DNA of 53,369 nt. Source: Serinicoccus sediminis (GTDB taxonomy: Bacteria; Actinomycetota; Actinomycetes; Actinomycetales; Dermatophilaceae). The notes beneath the pieces are model-generated. The model did not search any database. It was given only the letters and a program-made list of their open reading frames with translations, and had not been told where the DNA came from. Shown here one piece after another: positions 39,840 through 49,752 of this stretch. The stretch is from positions 1 through 53,369 of the forward strand of contig NZ_SDVA01000020.1 of assembly GCF_004153545.1 (NCBI RefSeq), read 5' to 3'. Numbering within the stretch: position 1 is the stretch's first letter; every line of letters begins with the position of its first letter. Both the position numbers and the translations under genes were made by a program.

Positions 39840-42407
39840 TCACCGACCGACCGGCGTGGCACGCCACGGCGCCCCCCACGCCACGAAGGCGCCCGCGAGC
39901 GGGTGCGCGTCGACCGCGGCCCGGCCGAGCGCCTCGTCCGCGGCCAGGCCCCGGGCGAGCAGCTCGTGGTAGCGGGGCAGGTGGTCGGCGGCCACCTCGT
40001 CGGGGATCCGGCAGGGGGCGGCGACCACGCTCGCGACCCCCAGCCAGAGCAGCCCCGCCGCCAGCCCGAGGGCCGCCGAGCCACCGCGGTGGCGGGACCG
40101 GCCGGAGTCGCAGGCCGACAGGACGACGTGGGAGGCGTGCCGGGGCTGGCGCTCCAGGTCGGCGAGGAAGTAGGGCCCGTCGGTGAGCCAGAGCGAGGAG
40201 AACAGCGGGCTGTCGTCACGGTGCCGTCCGTGGGCGGCGACGTGGACGAGGTCGTGCTGCCCCAGCGCGCCCGCGAGGTCCGAGGCACTGGTGTCGTGGA
40301 CCGACCGGCCCCGGGGCCACACCGCCGCCACCCGGTCGACCTCCTCGGCCCCCCGGCCCAGCCCGGGCCCGGCCAGGGCGGCCACCAGGGGATCGGCCAC
40401 CTCGGTGCTCCCCCTGGCCCAGCCCGTGACGCTGGGCGAGACCGGGGTCGGCTGGCCGCGGCGGCTGGGCAGCAGCCCCCACGGCACCGACGCCAGCCCG
40501 GGCGTGGGCACGACGAGCACCCGGCCCTCGAGGCGCAGCGGGCGCAGCACCCGCTCGTCCAGGGCCAGCGAGGACCGCTGCAGCGAGCGCTGCAGCGTCT
40601 CCTCCATCGGTCCGCCGCAGGCCCGGGCGCCGGTCTCGAGGTCGGCGGCGAGGACCCGGGCCTCCTCGAGCACCGGCGCCAGCGGACCGAGGTCGACGTC
40701 GCGCAGGCGGCGGGCCGGGCCGGCCACGGCGCGGAGCCGACCCTCGGACTCGAGGAGGCACACGAGGGAGGTGTCCCGCTCGGCCAGCCGCCCCAGGGAC
40801 CGGGCGAGGTCGTCCCGGGTGACCATGCCCCGTGGGGCGCCCTGGCCGGGGGCGGACCAGGACAGTGTGGCGACCGACCGCTCCAGCTCGCGGACCCGGG
40901 CCCGCAGCCGGTGGGCCCGCCCCAGGTCGTCCCGCACCTGCTGCCGCAGGTGGCGCAGCACCGTCGTCCGCCGGGCCAGCTCGGGGTCGTCCGGCGGCAG
41001 GACGGCCGGGGACCTGCTCGCGGCCTCGCGCCAGCGCTCGACCGCCAGCAGCGTCTCGCGAGGCGCGGGTGGGGCGACGGCCAGGTCGAGCCGGGCCAGG
41101 TCCTGCGCGTAGAGGTGGGTCGCGGCGCGCAGCTCCAGGCTCGAGCTGCCGGCGACCGTCTCGGTCAGGTCGGCCAGCGCGGCCCGCAGGTGGCGACGGG
41201 CCGTCGGGGGGTCCTGCGCGTCCCGCGCGGCCCCGGCCAGCACCCCGCGCGCCCGCAGCCGGGTGCTCAGCGAGCCGACGTGCGTGAGGTCCGCGGTGGC
41301 GCGCAGCAGCCGCACCGCCTCCTCCGTCCGGCCGCGCTCCACCTCGGTCTCGGCCACGACGAGCCGGGCCAGGTCCGCGGCGACGTGGTCGCCCTCGGCG
41401 TCGAACGCCTCGACGAGCACCCGCCCCCGGCGGGCGACGTCGGCGGAGCGGCCGCCACGCCGCCGACGGGCGTCGAGCAGCACCAGCTCGGCGCGCCGGT
41501 GCAGGCCGGGCGCACGGTGCTGCAGCAGGCGTCGGGCCCGCAGGGCCACCTCGGCCGCGGCGTCGTGCCGGCCCTCGACCAGCTCGGCCATCGCCAGGTC
41601 GCCCTCGATCTCCCCGGCGACCAGACGCTGCCCGGTGCGCTCGGCCTCCGCGGACGCCCGCAGGAGCAGCTCGCGGGCCTCGTCGACGAGACCGGCGTCG
41701 AGCAGCGTCCGGGACCGGCCGTGCAGCGCCACCGCCGCCGAGGCCCCCTGCCCCAGCCGCTCGATGTCCCGGTAGAGCCGCAGGGCCCGCGGCAGGTCCC
41801 CCGAGAGGGCGACCGTCTGCGCCAGGTTGTGCCGAGCCATGAACTCCTGCACCCGCAGGTCGTGCTCGTGGGCGATGCGCGCCGCCTCGGCGAAGTCGTC
41901 CTCCGCGCGCGCCGGGTCCGGCCCCTCGGCCCGCACCGCGCCGCGCGACAGCAGCAGCTCGAACCGGTCGGCCGGTCCCAGCCGGTCCACGGACGCCAGG
42001 GCGTGCTCGAGGTGCGCCAGGGCCGCGCCCGGGTGGCCCGTCCGCCCGTTGATCATGGCCAGCTGCAGGCGGCACTTCGCGACCAGGACGACACTCAGGT
42101 CGGGCTCCAGCCCCTCGGCCAGCTCCAACGCCCGGCCCGCCACCTCCAGAGCGCTGGCGGTGCCGTGCCGCTGCACGAGCGAGGTGCTCAACGACAGCAG
42201 CAGCCGCACCTCGGCCTCGTCGGCGGCGGCGTCACCCGCGCCCATGGACGCCAGCCCGGCCACCCGCGCCGGCCACTCCTCCCGGAGCAGGGCCAGGGCG
42301 CGGCGGAGCAGTCGCTCCCCCTCCGCAGGCCGACCCTCCACGTTGGCCGCCCGGCCCTGGACGAACAGCTCCCCGACGGTGGCCGGGGTGGCCGTGGCTC
42401 GCGGCAT
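39840..42407 (-). CDS. TPR-CHAT domain protein (caspase-like protease)
   Basis: The 855-residue protein begins with a long array of TPR-like helical repeats (about residues 1-480; for example AEGERLLRRALALLREEWP, ALEVAGRALELAEGLEP). A coiled-coil-like stretch near 500-530 follows, then the C-terminal CHAT domain. The catalytic dyad is H726 in VHVAAHGRHRD and C766 in VVLSACDSGRS, 40 residues apart as in caspase-like enzymes. CHAT proteins cut specific protein targets, often in regulatory or defence systems. It is preceded at 7 bases by the small unknown gene and ends 20 bases before mreB. No NTPase partner is present. Confidence 0.9.
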   Translation of the reverse strand: MPRATATPATVGELFVQGRAANVEGRPAEGERLLRRALALLREEWPARVAGLASMGAGDAAADEAEVRLLLSLSTSLVQRHGTASALEVAGRALELAEGLEPDLSVVLVAKCRLQLAMINGRTGHPGAALAHLEHALASVDRLGPADRFELLLSRGAVRAEGPDPARAEDDFAEAARIAHEHDLRVQEFMARHNLAQTVALSGDLPRALRLYRDIERLGQGASAAVALHGRSRTLLDAGLVDEARELLLRASAEAERTGQRLVAGEIEGDLAMAELVEGRHDAAAEVALRARRLLQHRAPGLHRRAELVLLDARRRRGGRSADVARRGRVLVEAFDAEGDHVAADLARLVVAETEVERGRTEEAVRLLRATADLTHVGSLSTRLRARGVLAGAARDAQDPPTARRHLRAALADLTETVAGSSSLELRAATHLYAQDLARLDLAVAPPAPRETLLAVERWREAASRSPAVLPPDDPELARRTTVLRHLRQQVRDDLGRAHRLRARVRELERSVATLSWSAPGQGAPRGMVTRDDLARSLGRLAERDTSLVCLLESEGRLRAVAGPARRLRDVDLGPLAPVLEEARVLAADLETGARACGGPMEETLQRSLQRSSLALDERVLRPLRLEGRVLVVPTPGLASVPWGLLPSRRGQPTPVSPSVTGWARGSTEVADPLVAALAGPGLGRGAEEVDRVAAVWPRGRSVHDTSASDLAGALGQHDLVHVAAHGRHRDDSPLFSSLWLTDGPYFLADLERQPRHASHVVLSACDSGRSRHRGGSAALGLAAGLLWLGVASVVAAPCRIPDEVAADHLPRYHELLARGLAADEALGRAAVDAHPLAGAFVAWGAPWRATPVGR

Positions 42408-42414
42408 ACCGACC

Positions 42415-42915
42415 TCAGAGGGCGAAGGTCGGGGTGAGGACGGGCCGGCCGCCGGGCGGGCGCACGACGAGGTAGGCCGGTCCGCGCTCGACGGACCCCA
42501 GGACGAACCGCCCGTCGCGCACCGGGACCACCTCCGAGCGGCCGTCCGGGCGGGCCAGCTCGATCTCCTCGACGTCGCAGGTGATCCACCCGTCGACCCT
42601 GGCCGTCCCGTCGGTCTCGCCGCTCACCGTGACCATGACGCTGACGCTGTCGGTGCTGAAGGTCACCGTCATGGCCTGGTCCGGCTCGTCGTCGTCGGCC
42701 CGGGTGAGAACCAGGGGTGCCCGGGTGAGCTCGGCCACCTCGGCCTGCAGGGCCTGCACGGTGAGTGCGAAGGCGATGCGCTCGGTCAGCCCCGCCGGGC
42801 ACGGGTCCAGCCGGGTGACGGTCTCCCGGAGCTCGGTCAGCAGGGCGACGTCGCCCTGATCCATCGGCAGCCCCCCGCCGTCGTGGTCGGGACGCTGGTC
42901 GCGGTCGTCGTCCAT
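42415..42915 (-). CDS. Unknown protein between the sigma factor and CHAT genes
   Basis: This 166-residue protein was not recognised. The first part is helical (GDVALLTELRETVTRLDPCPAGLTERIAFALTVQALQAEVAELTRAP), then a beta-rich segment (VTFSTDSVSVMVTVSGETDGTARVDGWITCD; VVPVRDGRFVLGSVERGPAYLVVRPPGG) resembling a carboxypeptidase-regulatory-like beta sandwich. Its ATG overlaps the sigma-factor stop in TGATG. Position next to an ECF-type sigma gene makes an anti-sigma or sensor role possible, but no zinc motif or TM segment is visible. Confidence 0.8.
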   Translation of the reverse strand: MDDDRDQRPDHDGGGLPMDQGDVALLTELRETVTRLDPCPAGLTERIAFALTVQALQAEVAELTRAPLVLTRADDDEPDQAMTVTFSTDSVSVMVTVSGETDGTARVDGWITCDVEEIELARPDGRSEVVPVRDGRFVLGSVERGPAYLVVRPPGGRPVLTPTFAL

Positions 42916-43526
42916 CACGGTCCCGCCCACCTCTCGTCGGCGGCGAGCGAGCGCCGCAGCTTGTCCAGGCAACGGCCCCGCGTGGGACCGATGCTCCCCC
43001 GGGGCATGTCGAGTGCCGCCGAGATCTCGTCGTAGTCGGGCCGGTCGCAGAAGGCGACGATGCGCAGCAGCCGCCGGCACCGCTCGGAGAGCCGCTGCAC
43101 GGCCGACCACAGGGTCTGCTGGCGCTCGGTGAGCACCGCGAGGGCCTCCGGGCCGGGGTCGGCCTCCCCGGGGTCGACGGTGCCGGTGGGGTCGTGCTGG
43201 GTCCGTCGGGCCACCTTGGCCGTGCGCCAGCTCTCCCGCTTCACCGACACGACGAGCCAGCCCAGCACCGCCTCGTCCTCCCGGATGTCCTGGGCGTGCT
43301 CCACCAGCCGCATCCAGACGTCCTGCACGACGTCCTCCGCGCCGTCGCGGGCGCAGCCGTGGGCCCGGGCCACCTGCCACAGCAGGGGGGTGACCAGCTC
43401 GACGAGCTCGCCGAGGGCCTGCGCCTGCCCCTCCCGGTAGCGGCGGAAGCAGGCACCGGCCTGCTCGCCGAGGGACGGCGGGTCCTGGTGGGTCCGCAGG
43501 TCCGGGTCGTCGTCGGTCAGCATCAT
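42915..43526 (-). CDS. Sigma-70 family (ECF-type) RNA polymerase sigma factor
   Basis: This 203-residue protein has sigma region 2 (GCARDGAEDVVQDVWMRLVEHAQDIREDEAVLGWLVVSVKRESW) and region 4 with a helix-turn-helix (LSERCRRLLRIVAFCDRPDYDEISAALDMPRGSIGPTRGRCLDKLRRSL). A Pro/Gly-rich linker connects them. Two tandem ATG codons (43526, 43523) lie just after the AGGAGGA that ends the subtilase gene, so translation is coupled. It may drive this operon from the divergent intergenic region; that is inference. Confidence 0.92.
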   Translation of the reverse strand: MMLTDDDPDLRTHQDPPSLGEQAGACFRRYREGQAQALGELVELVTPLLWQVARAHGCARDGAEDVVQDVWMRLVEHAQDIREDEAVLGWLVVSVKRESWRTAKVARRTQHDPTGTVDPGEADPGPEALAVLTERQQTLWSAVQRLSERCRRLLRIVAFCDRPDYDEISAALDMPRGSIGPTRGRCLDKLRRSLAADERWAGP

Positions 43527-45211
43527 TCCTCCTTCAGCAGCCGCCGCAGGGCTGCGGCGGCCCGGCGGCGCAGGTCCGGCGCCGCGTCCTTCGCGTCGTC
43601 GGGGGACCGCTTCCCCGACAGGGCCGCGGCGAGCTCGCCGGACAGCCACGGCGCGGCGAAGCTGGTGCCGCTCCAGACGCCGAACCCGCCGCGCAGGTCG
43701 TCCGGGTCGGGAGTGGCGCGGTCCGCGCCGCCGTGCGGACCGGGGGTCCGGCGGTCGGCCTGCGCCGAGGCGTCGAAGGTCACCGGGAAGGTGCTCACCA
43801 CGTTGACGCCCGGGCGGTGGGTGGTCACCCACGGCCCGGCGTTGCTGAACATCGCCACGGTGCGCCGGTCGGGGTTGAGGGCGCCCACGCAGACCATGGG
43901 CACCGGCTGCCCGGGGTCCGGCACGGTGCCGGGGCCGGCCGCCCAGCCCCCGGGGTACATGGGGGTGGTGGTCGCCTGGTTGCCGGCCGCGGCGACCACG
44001 GCCACACCCACCTGTCCGTAGAGCTCCAGCAGCCGGCGCACCGGGTGCTGCGCCACCTCCCCGTCCTGGTGGTAGAACCCGAGCGAGAGGTTGAGCACGT
44101 CGACGACCCCTCCGGCCTCGTCGAACTCCGCCCGCCCCCGGTCCTGGTGGATGAGGTGCAGCACCAGCAGCACGGACAGCGTGCGGGTCACGTCCTGCTC
44201 GGCGGCCAGCCCGGCCGAGTCCAGCACCGGCAGGGCCACGATGCGGGCCCCGGGGGCGGCCTGCCGGACGACCCCGGCCACGAAGGTGCCGTGCCCGGAG
44301 AGCACGTCCAGGGCCCCGGTGAGCTCGTCGTCGACGCCGGTGCCCTCCGGCCACGGGGTCGGGCGGCCGCCGGGCAGGATCGGCCACCCGAGCAGCGAGC
44401 GCCGCTGCAGGGCGAGGTCGGACCCGGTGAACCACGGGTGCTCGCCGAGGCCGGTGTCCGGCACCACGACCACGGGAGGCCGGCGGCCGGGCGCGCGGCG
44501 GGTCGGGTCCGGCAGGGCCAGCTGCACCGGGGCCCGGTCCGGGGCGACGCCGGGCACCCCGGTCTGGCCGCCCCAGTAGAGGCCGCCGCCCTGGCCGCCC
44601 CAGTACAGGCCGCCGCCCTGGCCGCCCCAGTAGAACCCGCCGCCCCCGGGCAGCACGAGGTGCTCGAGGTCGACCCCCTCCAGACCAGCGGCCCGCGCGG
44701 CGAGGAGCAGCGACCACGGGTCGGGCTCCTCGACCCGCGCGTCCGGCACGACGTAGACGCGCGAGGCGTAGCCCTCGTCCAGCTCCGCCACGGTCACCGC
44801 GCCGACCTGCAGCCCGGGGTCGAGGCGGGTCACCTCGTCGTCGGGGTCCATCGGCCCGCTGACCACCTGCTCGACGTCCTTCCCCGCCCCGGGCTCCGCA
44901 CCGGACTCGACGGCCTGCAGGAGCCAGCGCCCGAACGCCTCGTCGGCGGTGTCGGTGCGCAGGGACACGGCATACCCCGCCTCCCGCAGGACCCGCTGCA
45001 GCTCGCCGACCCGGTCGGCGGCCGAGACGCCCAGCAGCCCGGCCACGAGCAGCCGGGTGTTGAGGTATGCCGTCGCCGAGGGCGCGGGCAGCCGCGTGCC
45101 GCTGCGCGGGTCCTCCTCGCGGGGGGCGGTGGCCGGGTCCAGCACCCGGGCGTCGTGGCGCCGCAGGAGGGACGAGGGCAGGTGCAGGTCGACGGGCTCG
45201 ACGTGGGGCAT
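43523..45211 (-). CDS. S8 (subtilisin-like) serine peptidase with GGGLYWGGQ repeats
   Basis: The 562-residue protein has no signal peptide. An N-terminal region (about 1-185) is of unknown fold. Then three copies of a nine-residue motif (GGGFYWGGQ, GGGLYWGGQ twice; residues about 190-216) lead to the subtilase domain: D252 (VVVVPDTGLGEH), H307 (LSGHGTFVAGVV), oxyanion N in AAAGNQ and S517 (WSGTSFAAPWLSG). It ends in an Arg/Lys-rich helix. RBS AAGGAGG is close to the ATG. It is the first gene of the leftward operon with sigma factor and CHAT protease; the intact triad suggests activity. Confidence 0.93.
   Translation of the reverse strand: MPHVEPVDLHLPSSLLRRHDARVLDPATAPREEDPRSGTRLPAPSATAYLNTRLLVAGLLGVSAADRVGELQRVLREAGYAVSLRTDTADEAFGRWLLQAVESGAEPGAGKDVEQVVSGPMDPDDEVTRLDPGLQVGAVTVAELDEGYASRVYVVPDARVEEPDPWSLLLAARAAGLEGVDLEHLVLPGGGGFYWGGQGGGLYWGGQGGGLYWGGQTGVPGVAPDRAPVQLALPDPTRRAPGRRPPVVVVPDTGLGEHPWFTGSDLALQRRSLLGWPILPGGRPTPWPEGTGVDDELTGALDVLSGHGTFVAGVVRQAAPGARIVALPVLDSAGLAAEQDVTRTLSVLLVLHLIHQDRGRAEFDEAGGVVDVLNLSLGFYHQDGEVAQHPVRRLLELYGQVGVAVVAAAGNQATTTPMYPGGWAAGPGTVPDPGQPVPMVCVGALNPDRRTVAMFSNAGPWVTTHRPGVNVVSTFPVTFDASAQADRRTPGPHGGADRATPDPDDLRGGFGVWSGTSFAAPWLSGELAAALSGKRSPDDAKDAAPDLRRRAAAALRRLLKEE
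44564..44644 (-). repeat. Three tandem 27-bp repeats inside the S8 gene
   Basis: Units at 44564-44590, 44591-44617 and 44618-44644, almost identical at DNA level, encode GGGLYWGGQ-type motifs. DNA identity suggests recent slippage or gene conversion. Confidence 0.9.
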
Positions 45212-45384: not shown

Positions 45385-46710
45385 ATGGAGCACGACGCGG
45401 TCGCCGCGGCACGCATCCGCCCCACCAAGGAGCAGGTCGAGGACGAGCTGCTCGCCCTGGACGGGGTCGTGGGCGTCGACATCGGCGAGAAGATCAGCGA
45501 CGGCAGACCCACCGGCGAGCTGAGCATCGTCGTCTACGTCGAGGCCAAGAAGGCGCCCTCGCGCGTCCCCAAGGGCCAGCAGGTGCCGGCGGAGGTGGCG
45601 GGCGTCCCCACCGACGTGCAGGAGCTCGTCATCGAGCTGCAGGGGGGCCCCGGCCTCTACGCCGGCGACCCGCTGAGCGACACGAGCAAGCACACGACCA
45701 TCAGGGGCGGGATCAGCATCGGTCCCGCCCGGCACCAGAACGCCGGGACCGGCGGGGCCCTGGTGCGGGACACCACCACCGGGGCGCTCGCCCTGCTCAC
45801 CAACTACCACGTCGCCTGCGTGGACACCTCCTGGACGGCCGGCGAGGACGTGCTGCAGCCGGGCCGCTTCGACAGCGGCGACCCGGCGACCGACCGGGTC
45901 GGCACGCTGACCCGCGGCGTCATCTCCGAGCAGGTCGACGGGGCGGTGGTCCGCCTGGACCCGGACGAGGCGTGGGCCGACGAGGTCGTCGACATCGGCG
46001 CCGTCAACGGCAGCACGGCCGCGGTGGTCGGCATGGCGGTCCAGAAGCGCGGGCGCACCACGGAGCACACGCACGGCGAGGTGGTGTCGGTCGACGCGAC
46101 CGTGACGCTCGACTACGGCGACGGCGTCGGGATGCGGACGCTGCGGCACCAGGTCTCCATCCGCCCCGCCGCCGGGGGGCCGCGGTTCTCCGACCGGGGC
46201 GACTCGGGCTCGGTCGTCATGAACGGCGGCCGCCAGGTCGTCGGGCTGCTCTTCGCCGGTGCCCGGGACGGCAGCCTCACCTTCGCCAACCCGGTCGCCT
46301 CGGTGCTCTCCGAGCTCGAGGTGACCCTCAACCCGCCCCGCGTGGTGCTCCCGCCCCCGCTGCGGTCGCGGATCACCGTGCTGTGCCCGACCCGCACCGA
46401 GCCGTGGTGCCCGGGCGCACGCACCCGGCCCTACGTGACCTGCCCGCCGGTGCTGCGGACCCGGCCCTTCGTCGACTGCCCCCCGGTGCGGCTCACCCGG
46501 ATCCCGGACTGCCTGCCCCCGGACAGCCGCCTGTGCCCGCCCCCGGTGAGCCGGGTGTGCGGCGGGTGGCAGAACCCGTACGAGCAGGGGTGGGACGGCG
46601 GTGGCGACGCCGGGCCCGACGACGCCTCCTGGTGGGCGGGCTACCACGCCGCGCTGGACCAGGTCGCCCAGGAGCTCGACGAGCTGGAGCAGGACGGTCC
46701 ACCGGCATGA
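45385..46710 (+). CDS. Trypsin-like serine protease with a Cys/Ser/Thr repeat tail
   Basis: The 441-residue protein has no signal peptide. Residues about 10-100 form the entry domain common in Nal1/trypsin-like bacterial proteases (GVVGVDIGEKISDGRPTGELSIVVYVEAKK; GVPTDVQEL). The protease triad appears as H142 (LLTNYHVACVD), D185 (QVDGAVVRLD) and S274 (DRGDSGSVVM). After residue 325 comes a tail of seven units of (S/T)-R-x(1-4)-C, mostly followed by Pro, then a Trp/Gly/Asp-rich end. ATG 45385 is preceded by AGGAGGT. Three lanthionine-synthetase-like genes follow with 4-base overlaps, suggesting that this tail is their substrate. Confidence 0.85.
   Translation: MEHDAVAAARIRPTKEQVEDELLALDGVVGVDIGEKISDGRPTGELSIVVYVEAKKAPSRVPKGQQVPAEVAGVPTDVQELVIELQGGPGLYAGDPLSDTSKHTTIRGGISIGPARHQNAGTGGALVRDTTTGALALLTNYHVACVDTSWTAGEDVLQPGRFDSGDPATDRVGTLTRGVISEQVDGAVVRLDPDEAWADEVVDIGAVNGSTAAVVGMAVQKRGRTTEHTHGEVVSVDATVTLDYGDGVGMRTLRHQVSIRPAAGGPRFSDRGDSGSVVMNGGRQVVGLLFAGARDGSLTFANPVASVLSELEVTLNPPRVVLPPPLRSRITVLCPTRTEPWCPGARTRPYVTCPPVLRTRPFVDCPPVRLTRIPDCLPPDSRLCPPPVSRVCGGWQNPYEQGWDGGGDAGPDDASWWAGYHAALDQVAQELDELEQDGPPA
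46366..46560 (+). repeat. Seven (Ser/Thr)-Arg-x(1-4)-Cys units in the protease tail
   Basis: Units, with the final Cys number: SRITVLC334, TRTEPWC342, TRPYVTC353, TRPFVDC365, TRIPDC376, SRLC384, SRVC392. Each has Ser/Thr followed by Arg and one Cys 1-4 residues later; all but the fifth and last Cys are followed directly by Pro, and the fifth is followed by Leu-Pro-Pro. The repeats are conserved as protein pattern, not as DNA copies, so the spacing looks selected. Confidence 0.8.
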
Positions 46711-47609
46711 GGAGCGCCCCGGCCCTGCTGGCGCAGGCGATCACGCAGGGGGTGGTCGCCTGCGTCGGCGTGCTCGACGGCGAGGTGAGGCTGGTCGCGT
46801 GCTCGCGCAGCAACCTGGTGCACCGGCTCGACGTCGGCGGCGTCCCGGTGGCGTTCGTCAAGCAGCAGGGCGAGGCCACGGCCACCGACGGGCTGGCGAC
46901 GGTGGCCCGGGAGGCGGCCGTCCTCGCCGGCCTGCGCGGGGCGCCGGTGCCGGAGCTGCTGCACGCGGACGAGGAGTCGGTGTGGACCGCCGCGGTGCCC
47001 GGGGCGCCGCTGCACGAGACGCTGCCCCACGAGCCCGTGCCCGTCGCCCGCGCGCTGGGCGGGATGCTGGCCGAGCTGCACCGGCACCCGGTGCCGCCGA
47101 CGACCGACGTGCCCCGCGCCACCCGCCCGTGGCCGCTCACCGGACAGGCTCCGGCCAGCGTCCGCAGCGCGCCCGAGGGGTCCTGGGCCGCGCAGCTGGC
47201 GGGGCAGGTGCTGGACGGGGAGGGCGAGGAGGCGCGCACCCTGCGCAGGGCAGGGCGGGCGTGGCGCCGGCGACGCTGGGTCCACGGCGACCTGTCGGCC
47301 GACAACGTGCTGGTGAGGTGGGGCGAGGGCCGCGGCGGCCCGGAGGCCCACCTCGTCGACCTCGAGGACGGTGGCCTCGGGGAGCCCTCCTGGGACCTGG
47401 TGTGCGCCCTGCGAGTCCTCGACGAGTGTCTCGCCGTGGCCCAGGTCGAGCACGCACGGCGGGCCCTGCTGGAGGCCTACGCGGCCGGTTCCGGACCGGG
47501 GGCCGAGGACCCGGCGCTGCGCCTCGCGCACGACGTCATGGCCGACACCCGCACCGCCCTGAGCGACCTCGCGTCGTGGGGTCACCTCCACCGGGTGCTC
47601 GCCTCGTGA
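46707..47609 (+). CDS. APH-like kinase (class V lanthipeptide LxmK-like)
   Basis: This 300-residue aminoglycoside-phosphotransferase-fold kinase has an N-lobe (SRSNLVHRLDVGGVPVAFVKQQGE with a likely ATP-binding Lys), the Brenner motif HGDLSADN (H193, D195, N200) and the metal Asp D218 (VDLED). The combination with a HopA1-like gene and a LanC-like gene downstream matches class V lanthipeptide systems (lexapeptide type), where the kinase phosphorylates Ser/Thr before elimination. Start overlaps the protease stop (ATGA). Read alone it could be any APH-family kinase; context carries the call. Confidence 0.8.
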   Translation: MRSAPALLAQAITQGVVACVGVLDGEVRLVACSRSNLVHRLDVGGVPVAFVKQQGEATATDGLATVAREAAVLAGLRGAPVPELLHADEESVWTAAVPGAPLHETLPHEPVPVARALGGMLAELHRHPVPPTTDVPRATRPWPLTGQAPASVRSAPEGSWAAQLAGQVLDGEGEEARTLRRAGRAWRRRRWVHGDLSADNVLVRWGEGRGGPEAHLVDLEDGGLGEPSWDLVCALRVLDECLAVAQVEHARRALLEAYAAGSGPGAEDPALRLAHDVMADTRTALSDLASWGHLHRVLAS

Positions 47610-48502
47610 GCGGGGTCGCCGCGGCGCTGCAGGACGCCGCCCGGGTCGCCGCCGCCGGACCGGCCGGCGAGGACCCCCGCGAGCTCGCGGACCGGCTCTA
47701 CGCCCAGTGGTATGCCGCACCCGTCACCCCCGCCGTCGCCGAGGCCCCGGGCCCGCCCCTGGCCGGCCTGCTGGACGCGCGCACCCTCACCCTCGACGGC
47801 TGGACCTCCGCCACGGTCCGCCGGGTCGACGCGGCCGGCGGCCTCGTCGTGCGGGACCCCCAGGGCCGCCACCACGCCGTGCTCCCCGGCCGGTGGGCCC
47901 GGCCGTCGGGTGGGGCGGGGGGCGGGACGTCCCTGCCGCCGCGCGACGGGCAGCAGGTCCTGGTGCCACCGGTCGGTGGGCCGGTCGTCGCCGAGTCGTG
48001 GTGGCGGACCTGGTCCCCGGGCTGGGTGCACCCCGCCCCGGCGGAGCCGCTCACCCGGGTCTACCTGTGCGTCCGGCGGGACGCCCTGGTGCACGTCGTC
48101 GGTCGCGTGGTCGAGGTGCTCGTCGGGCTCGGCGGACCGTGGCTGCTCAAGTGCGCCGTCGACGCCGGCGCCCTCGTCCGGCCGGACCGGGTCGTGGCCT
48201 ACCTCCCAGACCGGGACGCCCCCGCCGCGGTCTCCGCGCTGGCCGGAGCCACCCGGGGGTGGCTCGAACCCCGTACGCCGCCGCTGACCGAGGCGCCGGT
48301 GCCCGGCCTGGCCTGGGCGCAGGACGACGGGGACGGCGCGAGCTTCGGGGAGAACCGCTGCGCCGCCCTGGCCCCGGCGCTCGCGGCCTGGCACAGCTCC
48401 GGTCAGCGCGCGGACGGGGAGCACGCGGCCCGGCGCGGCCTGCGCGAGGCCGGCCTCGACGACCGTCGACCGCACCTGCGCCGGGTAGGGGTGGCGGGAT
48501 GA
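47606..48502 (+). CDS. HopA1-family protein (phospho-Ser/Thr lyase-like)
   Basis: The 298-residue protein shows the HopA1 pattern: ELADRLYAQWYAAP, DGWTSATVRRVDAAGGLVVR, RVYLCVRRDALVHVVGRVVEVLVGLGGPWLLKCAVD, RPDRVVAYLPDRD and DDGDGASFGENRCAALAPAL. HopA1/LxmY proteins are thought to remove phosphate from phospho-Ser/Thr to give dehydro-residues, working with the LxmK kinase. GTG start overlaps the kinase stop (GTGA). No secretion signal or type III system is nearby, so an effector role is unlikely. Confidence 0.82.
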   Translation: MSGVAAALQDAARVAAAGPAGEDPRELADRLYAQWYAAPVTPAVAEAPGPPLAGLLDARTLTLDGWTSATVRRVDAAGGLVVRDPQGRHHAVLPGRWARPSGGAGGGTSLPPRDGQQVLVPPVGGPVVAESWWRTWSPGWVHPAPAEPLTRVYLCVRRDALVHVVGRVVEVLVGLGGPWLLKCAVDAGALVRPDRVVAYLPDRDAPAAVSALAGATRGWLEPRTPPLTEAPVPGLAWAQDDGDGASFGENRCAALAPALAAWHSSGQRADGEHAARRGLREAGLDDRRPHLRRVGVAG

Positions 48503-49752
48503 GCACGGCACCGACGGAGGCGGGGGCCGCGGTGGACCAGCTGGCCCGGGCCGCGACGGGGGCGGTGGTCGAGGCGGCGCTGCGCGACGGCGGGCGCGTC
48601 GGGTGGGTCACCTGGTCCCGGACCGAGGCCGACCCGCCGTCCCTGGAGGCCGCCGGACCCGAGGTCTACGACGGCGCGGCGGGTGTCGCCTGGGCGCTCA
48701 CGCTGCTGGCCCCGCTGCACGACCGGCCCGAGGAGCTGAGCGCACTGGCCCGTGCGGCCCTCCCGGCCCGGACGCCTGCCGCGGCCGGTCTCCTGGACGG
48801 CGCGACGGGTGTGGCCGTGGCGCGCGCCACGGTCACCGGTTCGCCCGGCGCGCTCCCGCCGCCCGACGTCCTCGCCGGCTCGAGCGACCACCTCGACGGG
48901 CTGTCCGGCCTGCTGCTGGCCGCCGTGTCCCTGGGGGCTTCCCCGGCGGAGCAGGCCGATGTCGTCAGGGCGCTCCTCGCCTGCGGCCGCGCCGACGGGG
49001 AGGGCTGGGCCCACCCCGGGCCGGTGGACGAGCACGGGGAGCCGGCCCGACCGCTCACCGGCCTCGCGCACGGCAGCAGCGGGGTGCTGCTGGCCCTGGC
49101 CCACTGGCTGGCCACCGACCCGGCAGGGCCGCTGGCCGACGAGGCCCGGGAGCGCCTCTACCGGACCTGGTTGTGGGAGAGCGCCTGGGCCGACCGGGTG
49201 CTGGGCTGGCCGGACCTGCGGGACGCGCCGCCGGCCTACCCGGTCCTGTGGTGCCACGGCGCCGCCGGGGTCACCGCCACCCGTCTCGAGCTCGGCCGGC
49301 TCGCCGACACGGGCGTCGACCTGGGCGTGCCCGCGCCGGCGCTGCGCAGCCAGGCCGGCACCGGACTGCTGCTGTGCCGCGAGGCGGTGGAGCAGGCCGG
49401 GGAGGCGGCGCGACGGCAGCTCGCGGACTCCGGGCCGACCTCGGTCCGGGTCGACCCGCAGGACGCCGGGCTGACCCTCTGCCACGGCCTGGGTGGTCCG
49501 CTCGACGTCCTGGCCTCGGCGGCGGCCCAGGGTGACACCGCGCACCTCGACGCCGCCCGCGCGGCGCTGGTGCCCGTGGCCGCACTGCTGGGCGACGACC
49601 CGCACCTGTGGCCGACCGGCCAGCGCACCCGCGGCGGCTACGGCCTGTTCCAGGGGCTCAGCGGGACGGCGCTCGTCCTGGCCCGGCTGGCGCACCCCGA
49701 GCTGGGGCTGCCCTCCCCCGGGCTGTTCGGCGCGCCCGTCCCGGGGGGCTGA
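48499..49752 (+). CDS. LanC-like cyclase
   Basis: The 417-residue alpha-toroid protein has the LanC sequence pattern: YDGAAGVAWAL, DGLSGLLLAAVSL, LTGLAHGSSGVLLALAHWL, LWCHGAAGVTATRLELGRL (C252), LCHGLGGPLDVLASAA (C328-H329) and GLFQGLSGTALVLARLAHPELGLPSPGLF. C252, C328 and H329 would form the zinc site that activates Cys thiols to close thioether rings. ATG overlaps the HopA1 stop (ATGA), completing a kinase-lyase-cyclase set. It converges with ndk. Confidence 0.88.
   Translation: MSTAPTEAGAAVDQLARAATGAVVEAALRDGGRVGWVTWSRTEADPPSLEAAGPEVYDGAAGVAWALTLLAPLHDRPEELSALARAALPARTPAAAGLLDGATGVAVARATVTGSPGALPPPDVLAGSSDHLDGLSGLLLAAVSLGASPAEQADVVRALLACGRADGEGWAHPGPVDEHGEPARPLTGLAHGSSGVLLALAHWLATDPAGPLADEARERLYRTWLWESAWADRVLGWPDLRDAPPAYPVLWCHGAAGVTATRLELGRLADTGVDLGVPAPALRSQAGTGLLLCREAVEQAGEAARRQLADSGPTSVRVDPQDAGLTLCHGLGGPLDVLASAAAQGDTAHLDAARAALVPVAALLGDDPHLWPTGQRTRGGYGLFQGLSGTALVLARLAHPELGLPSPGLFGAPVPGG

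What the first reader, a model, noticed from the sequence alone, without database searches (positions are those of the whole stretch)
46366..46560. Protease tail built of seven (Ser/Thr)-Arg-x(1-4)-Cys units, beside a lanthionine synthetase set
Directly seen: after an intact trypsin-like domain (H142, D185, S274), residues 328-392 contain SRITVLC, TRTEPWC, TRPYVTC, TRPFVDC, TRIPDC, SRLC and SRVC, each Cys usually followed by Pro. Known: lanthionine rings form between a dehydrated Ser/Thr and a Cys a few residues away, normally in a short precursor peptide. The three following, overlapping genes encode the needed kinase, lyase and cyclase types, and no precursor-like ORF is visible nearby. Inference: the modified substrate is the tail of a full-size protease, giving a thioether-stapled tail that could anchor, stabilise or regulate it. 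I know of no described system of this kind.
Basis: partly seen in the sequence, partly recalled or inferred. Interest (0 to 1): 0.88.

Follow-up and report, generated by a model that had tools for sequence, protein, structure and literature searches.

The report
Proteases with predicted thioether-stapled tails
Several groups of actinobacteria carry proteases whose tails are strings of Ser/Thr...Cys units, found next to enzymes that normally staple small antibiotic peptides, which suggests that these enzymes staple the tail of a whole protein, something I found no report of.

Summary
In detail: a protein of a Serinicoccus-genus genome (45385-46710) has a trypsin-like domain with its triad and seven (S/T)R-x(1-4)-C units, followed by overlapping genes for an APH kinase (LanK), a HopA1 lyase (LanY) and a zinc-type LanC. 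This is the class Vb lanthionine synthetase set; no small precursor gene was seen. In searches with the protease, 17 of 17 tailed trypsin homologues have the three enzymes and 0 of 11 untailed ones do. Three more tailed trypsins and four subtilisins with (S/T)x2-5C tails, found by searching with HopA1, also sit beside the trio. Of 143 tail Cys, 142 have a Ser/Thr just upstream (shuffles: mean 104, maximum 118). All 24 tailed loci keep the HopA1 residues, and 23 of 23 readable ones the LanC zinc residues. Five relatives without a tailed protease lack the kinase and have lost the HopA1 Lys and Tyr; the four with a LanC-like gene have lost both zinc cysteines. Best reading: the tail of a full-size, probably cytoplasmic protease is the thioether-stapled substrate, in a module with a TPR-CHAT protease, a repeat-bearing subtilase and an ECF sigma factor. 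The chemistry is unproven; the tail's role is inferred.

The parts
45385..46710 (+). Trypsin-like (S1) protease, 441 aa, no strongly hydrophobic N-terminal stretch, with Cys-rich tail
   Evidence: Pfam Trypsin E 4.8e-4, 20.5 bits, just under its cut-off of 20.6; H142, D185, S274 invariant in 11 rows
46366..46560 (+). Tail of seven (S/T)R-x(1-4)-C units, proposed lanthionine/methyllanthionine substrate
46633..46692 (+). C-terminal segment WAGYHAALDQV..., proposed docking (follower) segment for the modifying enzymes
   Evidence: WxGYxAA present in 20 of 20 tailed trypsins; W417, G419, Y420, A422, A423 invariant in the 11 rows; role inferred
46707..47609 (+). LanK-type APH kinase
   Evidence: (LxmK model 28 bits, far below its 315-bit cut-off)
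47606..48502 (+). LanY-type HopA1 phospho-Ser/Thr lyase
   Evidence: model pLDDT 87; closest solved structure LxmY of LxmKY, E 5e-16
48499..49752 (+). LanC-type cyclase with presumed zinc ligands C252, C328, H329 and active-site H191
43523..45211 (-). Divergently encoded S8 subtilase
44564..44644 (-). (GGxYWGGQ)3 repeat just before the subtilase catalytic domain
42915..43523 (-). ECF-type sigma factor
42415..42915 (-). P5, 166-aa conserved protein without a family match (possible sigma partner, untested)
39840..42407 (-). TPR-CHAT caspase-like protease

Best explanation
The tail of a full-size, probably cytoplasmic serine protease is the substrate of a dedicated three-enzyme lanthionine synthetase of class Vb type. 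LanK phosphorylates the Ser/Thr of each unit, LanY eliminates the phosphate to leave dehydroalanine/dehydrobutyrine, and zinc-LanC adds the Cys 3-6 residues further on, giving a trypsin tail of 7-10 consecutive small thioether rings (more in some subtilisin types). The C-terminal WxGYxAA segment is the likely docking site for the enzymes, a follower in place of the usual N-terminal leader. The stapled tail stays on the protease as a rigid, protease-resistant arm that controls or positions it inside a proteolytic signalling module with the S8 subtilase, the TPR-CHAT protease and the ECF sigma factor encoded next to it. Shown: tail anatomy and conservation, strict co-occurrence with the enzymes in the genomes examined, retention of catalytic residues in step with the tail, separate HopA1 lineage. 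Inferred: each chemical step, the docking role of the segment, that the tail stays attached, and the regulatory role.
For: Co-occurrence: 17 of 17 tailed trypsins found by protease searches have the trio, 0 of 11 untailed ones (Fisher for 17/0/0/11 about 5e-8, worked by hand; one search gives 1.2e-8 for 20/0/0/11, which adds the three found through HopA1; relatedness ignored). Second protease family: four S8 subtilisins with (S/T)x2-5C tails sit directly upstream of the trio. Pattern: 162 of 163 Cys units in 20 trypsin tails hold [ST][RK] 3-6 residues before the Cys; 142 of 143 in the shuffle test. Enzymes: HopA1 R151/K182/R192/Y199 match by spacing CaoY R187/K219/R229/Y236 (PMC9486802 section 6; alignment A6); present in 24 of 24 tailed loci; LanC H/C/H/C/H in 23 of 23 readable. 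Natural control: 5 of 5 related loci without a tailed protease show no kinase and lost the HopA1 Lys and Tyr; 4 of 4 with a LanC-like gene lost both Cys. HopA1 fold closest to LxmY of the lexapeptide dehydratase. HopA1 tree: 29 protease-linked rows form one side of a branch (100/99) apart from 13 from other contexts, 10 of which show a short ORF of 48-77 aa ending in Cys.
Against: No mass or biochemical evidence. The subtilisin cases and three trypsin cases were found through HopA1, so they cannot test the rule 'no enzymes, no tail'. The untailed trypsins are mostly distant (28-38% identical; only G016 at 52%), so tail loss and enzyme loss within one close pair is seen once. One kinase (L124) has N for the catalytic-loop His. 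The kinase tree is less clean than the HopA1 tree. LanC of G012 matches in two frames, although near-identical G028 is open. Behind the stop of the untailed G016 protein the read-on stretch holds two short (S/T)R..C-like strings, chance or a tail remnant without enzymes nearby; not pursued. Why a protease should carry such a tail is not explained by direct evidence; the structure model of the protease failed (pLDDT 33).
Confidence: 0.72

Rival explanations
1. The protease domain is leader and maturation protease in one: the tail is modified and then cut off, by itself or by the S8/CHAT neighbours, to release a multi-ring lanthipeptide.
For: Known lanthipeptide leader proteases include subtilisin-like ones (PMC7268733, passages), and both S1 and S8 proteases carry the tails here; unit number and spacer residues vary between genera, as in diversifying peptides.
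Against: None of the eight cluster proteins scanned matches a transporter family (P5 has no match at all); by eye no conserved cleavage motif before the tail in A9; the proposed docking segment lies behind the tail, not before it; the trypsins lack a strongly hydrophobic N-terminus.
Confidence: 0.14
2. The tail is modified but reacts with other proteins: dehydrated residues or Cys form thioethers between molecules, so that the protease is tethered to a target or polymerised.
For: Multivalent tails of 7-10 units; in L193 the trypsin tail also carries the WGDGI repeat of its S8 partner, hinting at contact between the two.
Against: Each unit pairs one or more Ser/Thr with one Cys at ring-forming distance, which intramolecular rings explain better.
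Confidence: 0.05
3. The tail is an ordinary disulfide- or metal-binding Cys-rich tail and the enzymes modify something else (a precursor elsewhere).
For: Proximity and pattern are circumstantial; short genes can be missed, and the assembly is in 97 contigs.
Against: The only LanC and HopA1 matches of the genome are here; no small ORF in the cluster; no second copy of the tail in the genome at a convincing score; presence and absence with the trio; Ser/Thr is conserved with each Cys, which disulfides or metal do not need.
Confidence: 0.07

Closest known systems
Class Vb lanthipeptides (LanK, LanY, LanC; SmoA/SmoC)
   Same: Same three enzyme families: stand-alone LanK PF01636, LanY PF17914, and LanC for (Me)Lan formation (PMC12291118, passages; review PMC12328550 section 7; the SmoC paper PMC9621591 is not held).
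   Different: Candidate substrate is the C-terminal tail of a 440-690 aa protease, not a short precursor with an N-terminal leader; the HopA1 enzymes form a branch of their own among those I compared (no named class Vb enzyme was in the tree).
Class Va lanthipeptides (cacaoidin, lexapeptide)
   Same: LanK and LanY; LanY here is closest in structure to LxmY and keeps the CaoY catalytic residues.
   Different: Class Va has LanX and LanD and no LanC; here LanC is present, and neither LanD nor a second APH protein is among the eight cluster proteins scanned.
Borosins (recalled, no call)
   Same: The core to be modified is the C-terminal tail of a folded enzyme.
   Different: There the enzyme is the methyltransferase that modifies its own tail; here it is a protease with three other enzymes as proposed modifiers.
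Craspase: TPR-CHAT Csx29, Csx30, CASP-sigma (PMC10028731, abstract and section 7)
   Same: TPR-CHAT protease encoded with a further protein and an ECF sigma factor; there CHAT cleaves a sigma inhibitor.
   Different: No CRISPR effector among the cluster proteins scanned; P5 has no family match, is far shorter than Csx30 and is not shown to bind the sigma factor; two further serine proteases are present.

Membership tests
Class Vb lanthipeptide system | LanK, stand-alone APH-type kinase (PF01636) | tested here: met
Class Vb lanthipeptide system | LanY, HopA1-type lyase (PF17914) with catalytic Arg/Lys | tested here: met
Class Vb lanthipeptide system | LanC cyclase with zinc site | tested here: met
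   (ligand residues by alignment and motif)
Class Vb lanthipeptide system | Short precursor peptide with N-terminal leader in the cluster | tested here: not met
   none seen; the candidate substrate is a 441-aa protease
Class Vb lanthipeptide system | (Methyl)lanthionine in the product | not testable with these tools
   needs mass spectrometry
Class Va lanthipeptide system | LanD decarboxylase and LanX, no LanC | tested here: not met
   LanC present; none of the eight cluster proteins scanned matches a decarboxylase, and one APH protein only
Trypsin-like (S1) peptidase | His-Asp-Ser triad | tested here: met
   (invariant in 11 rows)
Trypsin-like (S1) peptidase | Arg/Lys specificity (Asp189) | tested here: inconclusive
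   counted by eye from S274, the position six before the Ser is F268; no structure to confirm

The most novel reading that the evidence does not exclude
A branch of lanthionine enzymes has been turned from making peptide natural products to a dedicated modification of proteins: it staples the tails of intracellular S1 and S8 proteases with up to about 17 thioether rings (7-10 on trypsins), and the stapled tail gates a caspase-like/sigma-factor proteolytic cascade.
Probability: 0.55. Interest if true: 0.93.

Novelty: new variant of a known kind. Interest (0 to 1): 0.87.

Why it matters
Lanthionine enzymes are known as makers of short peptides, many of them antibiotics. If they also staple the tails of full-size enzymes, thioether cross-links become a protein modification with a genetic signature that can be mined (S/T-x2-5-C tail plus LanK/LanY/LanC). 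It would offer natural enzymes that staple tails on folded proteins and a new form of protease control in a module that recalls cell-death and defence signalling. A genome-mining study of the field sorted clusters by class I-IV enzyme models and discarded the rest as unclassified (PMC7268733, passages), so such loci could have been passed over.

Tried and rejected
Considered and rejected: tail as chance Cys/Arg-rich high-GC reading (conserved in seven genomes; Arg codons vary in 7 of 7 unit columns while the residue holds). Separate precursor nearby, or a second tail-like protein in the genome: the best other match (E 0.012, 22 residues) lies in no Cys-repeat ORF; three weaker ones (E 0.4-0.7) were not looked at. 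Self-cleavage at the tail Arg by trypsin specificity: the S1-pocket position is not Asp by count, and subtilisin tails mostly lack the Arg (13 of 54 units). The untailed G016 trypsin (one search reported one TAG inside the match): the stretch behind the stop was looked at; it holds two short (S/T)R..C-like strings, which I take as chance without a test. The structure model of the protease failed and was not searched. Two of the early literature searches gave off-topic lists. Plasmid search: 13 records, none covers 80% of the query; all 13 matches end at or before residue 316, ahead of the tail.

Dropped before counts: the shuffle test used 15 of 24 tailed proteins (left out L018-L021 as near-copies and L191-L195, not yet fetched), and for L124 counted its first Cys cluster only (5 of 10 Cys). 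The HopA1 tree left out HopA1 loci with fused, cut or unclear genes (L055, L061-L064, L129, L153, L157, L159, L160). Weak trypsin matches (short segments, E above 1e-6: G664, G032, G1194, G1195, G1259, G1260 and second matches in other genomes) were not examined. Of the 11 untailed loci two lie near a contig end (L031 has 2.7 kb, L196 2.1 kb on one side; the others 7.4 kb or more on both). Genome searches were samples (1967 of 2000 allowed), not a full survey.

Full report
What was checked. The protein at 45385-46710 is 441 aa, with H142, D185 and S274 and seven (S/T)R-x(1-4)-C units at residues 328-392 = 46366-46560. Downstream, each gene overlapping the last by four bases, follow an APH kinase, a HopA1-family protein and a LanC-like protein. 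The opposite strand carries a subtilase, an ECF sigma factor, a 166-aa protein without family match ('P5') and a TPR-CHAT protein. The searched genome (3.5 Mb, 97 contigs) has a single LanC match and a single HopA1 match, both in this cluster. Four named genomes with the same protease at 82-91% identity are all Serinicoccus.

Conservation. Seven of 31 genomes of the genus have the HopA1 gene, and they are the seven with the tailed protease. Among those seven, the unit columns hold (6 of 7 Ser/Thr, the other a T/S swap; 7 of 7 Arg; 7 of 7 Cys) against 24 of 57 other tail columns; the Arg codons vary in 7 of 7 columns.

Trypsin searches over 58 relatives and 186 genomes of the family gave 17 tailed homologues (7 in this genus, 8 in genus g157, 2 in genus g458); 17 of 17 have kinase, HopA1 and LanC next to them (in L120 the LanC is cut by the contig end). 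Eleven untailed homologues were examined in 12-18 kb of surroundings, two of them near a contig end; 0 of 11 have any of the three, even with diverse queries. The closest untailed one, in G016, is 52% identical, the others 28-38%. Three further tailed trypsins came from searches with HopA1: G447, G1008, a genome outside the class, and G1137. In G1008 my gene caller missed the kinase, which was recovered by tblastn.

A second protease family. HopA1 searches also found four subtilisins directly upstream of the trio: L124 (693 aa, 10 Cys), L126 and L127 (623 and 624 aa, 19 Cys each), L128 (584 aa, 17 Cys). Their tails obey the same rule mostly without the Arg: of 55 Cys after residue 400, 54 have a Ser/Thr before them (52 at 3-6 residues, 2 at 9), 13 of these with R/K after it. 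In 20 trypsin tails 162 of 163 units hold [ST][RK] 3-6 residues before the Cys. In the shuffle test 142 of 143 Cys in 15 proteins have a Ser/Thr in reach, mean 104 and maximum 118 in 5000 shuffles that keep composition and Cys positions; singly, 7 of the 15 proteins stay above p 0.05, and the proteins are not independent.

Enzymes. The HopA1 model (pLDDT 87) is closest to LxmY of the lexapeptide dehydratase (Foldseek E 5e-16; profile E 3e-18), then the P. syringae effectors of the family and synthetases such as CuvL and SalKC. R151, K182, R192 and Y199 are spaced 31, 10 and 7 apart, against 32, 10 and 7 for R187, K219, R229 and Y236 of CaoY, where K219A and R187A abolish or nearly abolish elimination and R229Q weakens it (PMC9486802 section 6). 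RKRY in 24 of 24 tailed loci; kinase HDNDE in 23 of 24 (L124 has N for H); LanC H/C/H/C/H in 23 of 23 readable. In five loci of another family (L052, L123, L133, L134, L130), where HopA1 stands beside the S8/sigma/P5/CHAT genes without kinase or tailed protease, HopA1 has lost the Lys and Tyr in 5 of 5; four of them have a LanC-like gene and 4 of 4 have lost both Cys; L130 has HopA1 alone, the next gene being an unrelated membrane protein. This is the pattern expected if tail and chemistry go together.

Lineage. In the HopA1 tree (42 rows) the 29 protease-linked proteins fall on one side of a branch (100/99) and 13 that I had set apart by context on the other; 10 of these 13 show a short ORF of 48-77 aa that ends in Cys. 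Trypsin-tail rows group (88/83), the degenerate five group (100/100), S8-tail rows do not form one group. The kinase tree (37 rows) agrees for the trypsin set (100/99) but is weak elsewhere; one row of the other set (L065, a long branch) falls among the protease-linked kinases, and the tool flags joining of long branches in both trees.

Setting. In 396 genomes of the order, P5 occurs in 72 and HopA1 in 15, 11 shared against 2.7 expected (p 2.7e-6, relatedness ignored). Three more P5 genomes (G586, G672, G692) hold degenerate HopA1 genes that one search missed, so the HopA1 count is low. The lanthionine set plus tailed trypsin thus looks like an add-on to a wider S8/sigma/P5/CHAT module; the subtilisin-type loci are not beside it. 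TPR-CHAT with an ECF sigma factor recalls Csx29, Csx30 and CASP-sigma, where CHAT cleavage lifts inhibition of the sigma factor (PMC10028731, abstract and section 7). No strongly hydrophobic N-terminal stretch in the trypsins (highest 15-residue mean KD 0.6-1.1 in the first 60 aa; subtilisins 0.95-1.6) suggests a cytoplasmic place, where a disulfide-rich tail would be unexpected (inference; no signal-peptide predictor was run).

Recognition. WxGYxAA closes 20 of 20 trypsin tails and a similar GYxxGYAAALAQV occurs in one subtilisin, L124, but not in L126-L128 as read by eye. CaoA's leader is predicted to dock on its kinase through helices with a conserved Tyr and a Glu five residues on (PMC9486802 sections 7 and 8); Y420 and D425 here have the same spacing. 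I take the segment as a follower; this is a lead, not a test.

Literature. Ten searches, all but 74 aimed at this question, showed in their listings no paper on lanthionine in a protease tail; lists were capped and only open-licence PMC papers are held. Papers seen: PMC9486802 (abstract, sections 3, 6, 7, 8), PMC12291118, PMC7268733, PMC10604976 and PMC10907252 (passages), PMC12328550 (passages and section 7), PMC10028731 (abstract and section 7). The enzyme trio itself is known as class Vb.

Verdict. Failing the short-precursor test means I do not file it as a class V lanthipeptide, though it very likely works by class Vb chemistry.

Noticed in passing
44564-44644 (-), and S8 partners in L117-L120, L122, L125, L131, L132, L151, L191-L195: The S8 partner carries, just before its catalytic domain, short tandem repeats with an aromatic residue, near-identical within one protein but different between lineages: GGLYWGGQ, GWGQGI, GYGQGV, GYLQGV, PYTQPH, GHWGGI, PYWDPV, HPFTS, HPFWGG; less regular in L123 and L130. 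Copy number varies within Serinicoccus, 3 to 5.
   Followed up: partly
L193 6892-8352 and 8886-10376: The tailed trypsin of G1249 itself contains repeats with WGDGI, the repeat unit of its S8 partner, hinting that the two proteases bind each other or the same target.
   Followed up: no
L052 6761-8898, L123 9885-12016, L133 11303-13443, L134 3668-5808, L130 1261-2169: HopA1 and LanC-like genes (HopA1 alone in L130) without catalytic residues and without a kinase, kept next to the S8/sigma/P5/CHAT module: apparently re-used non-catalytic proteins.
   Followed up: partly
39840-43523 (-): TPR-CHAT, P5 and ECF sigma gene order; P5 matches in 72 of 396 genomes of the order, the neighbours checked only in the loci; resembles the Csx29/Csx30/CASP-sigma logic without CRISPR.
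   Followed up: partly
L061 9515-10233, L157 4629-5141: Small Cys-rich proteins (99-170 aa, CTCSCTCSC or CSQLISVPTGC patterns) beside HopA1-like genes, with a C-terminal helix-like LxxALxEV segment; possible other follower-type substrates.
   Followed up: no
L020 3256-4475: LanC of G012 matches in two frames, a frameshift or sequencing error; the near-identical G028 gene is open.
   Followed up: no
L178, behind the stop of the untailed trypsin of G016: The read-on stretch behind the stop holds two short (S/T)R..C-like strings; chance or a remnant of a lost tail.
   Followed up: no
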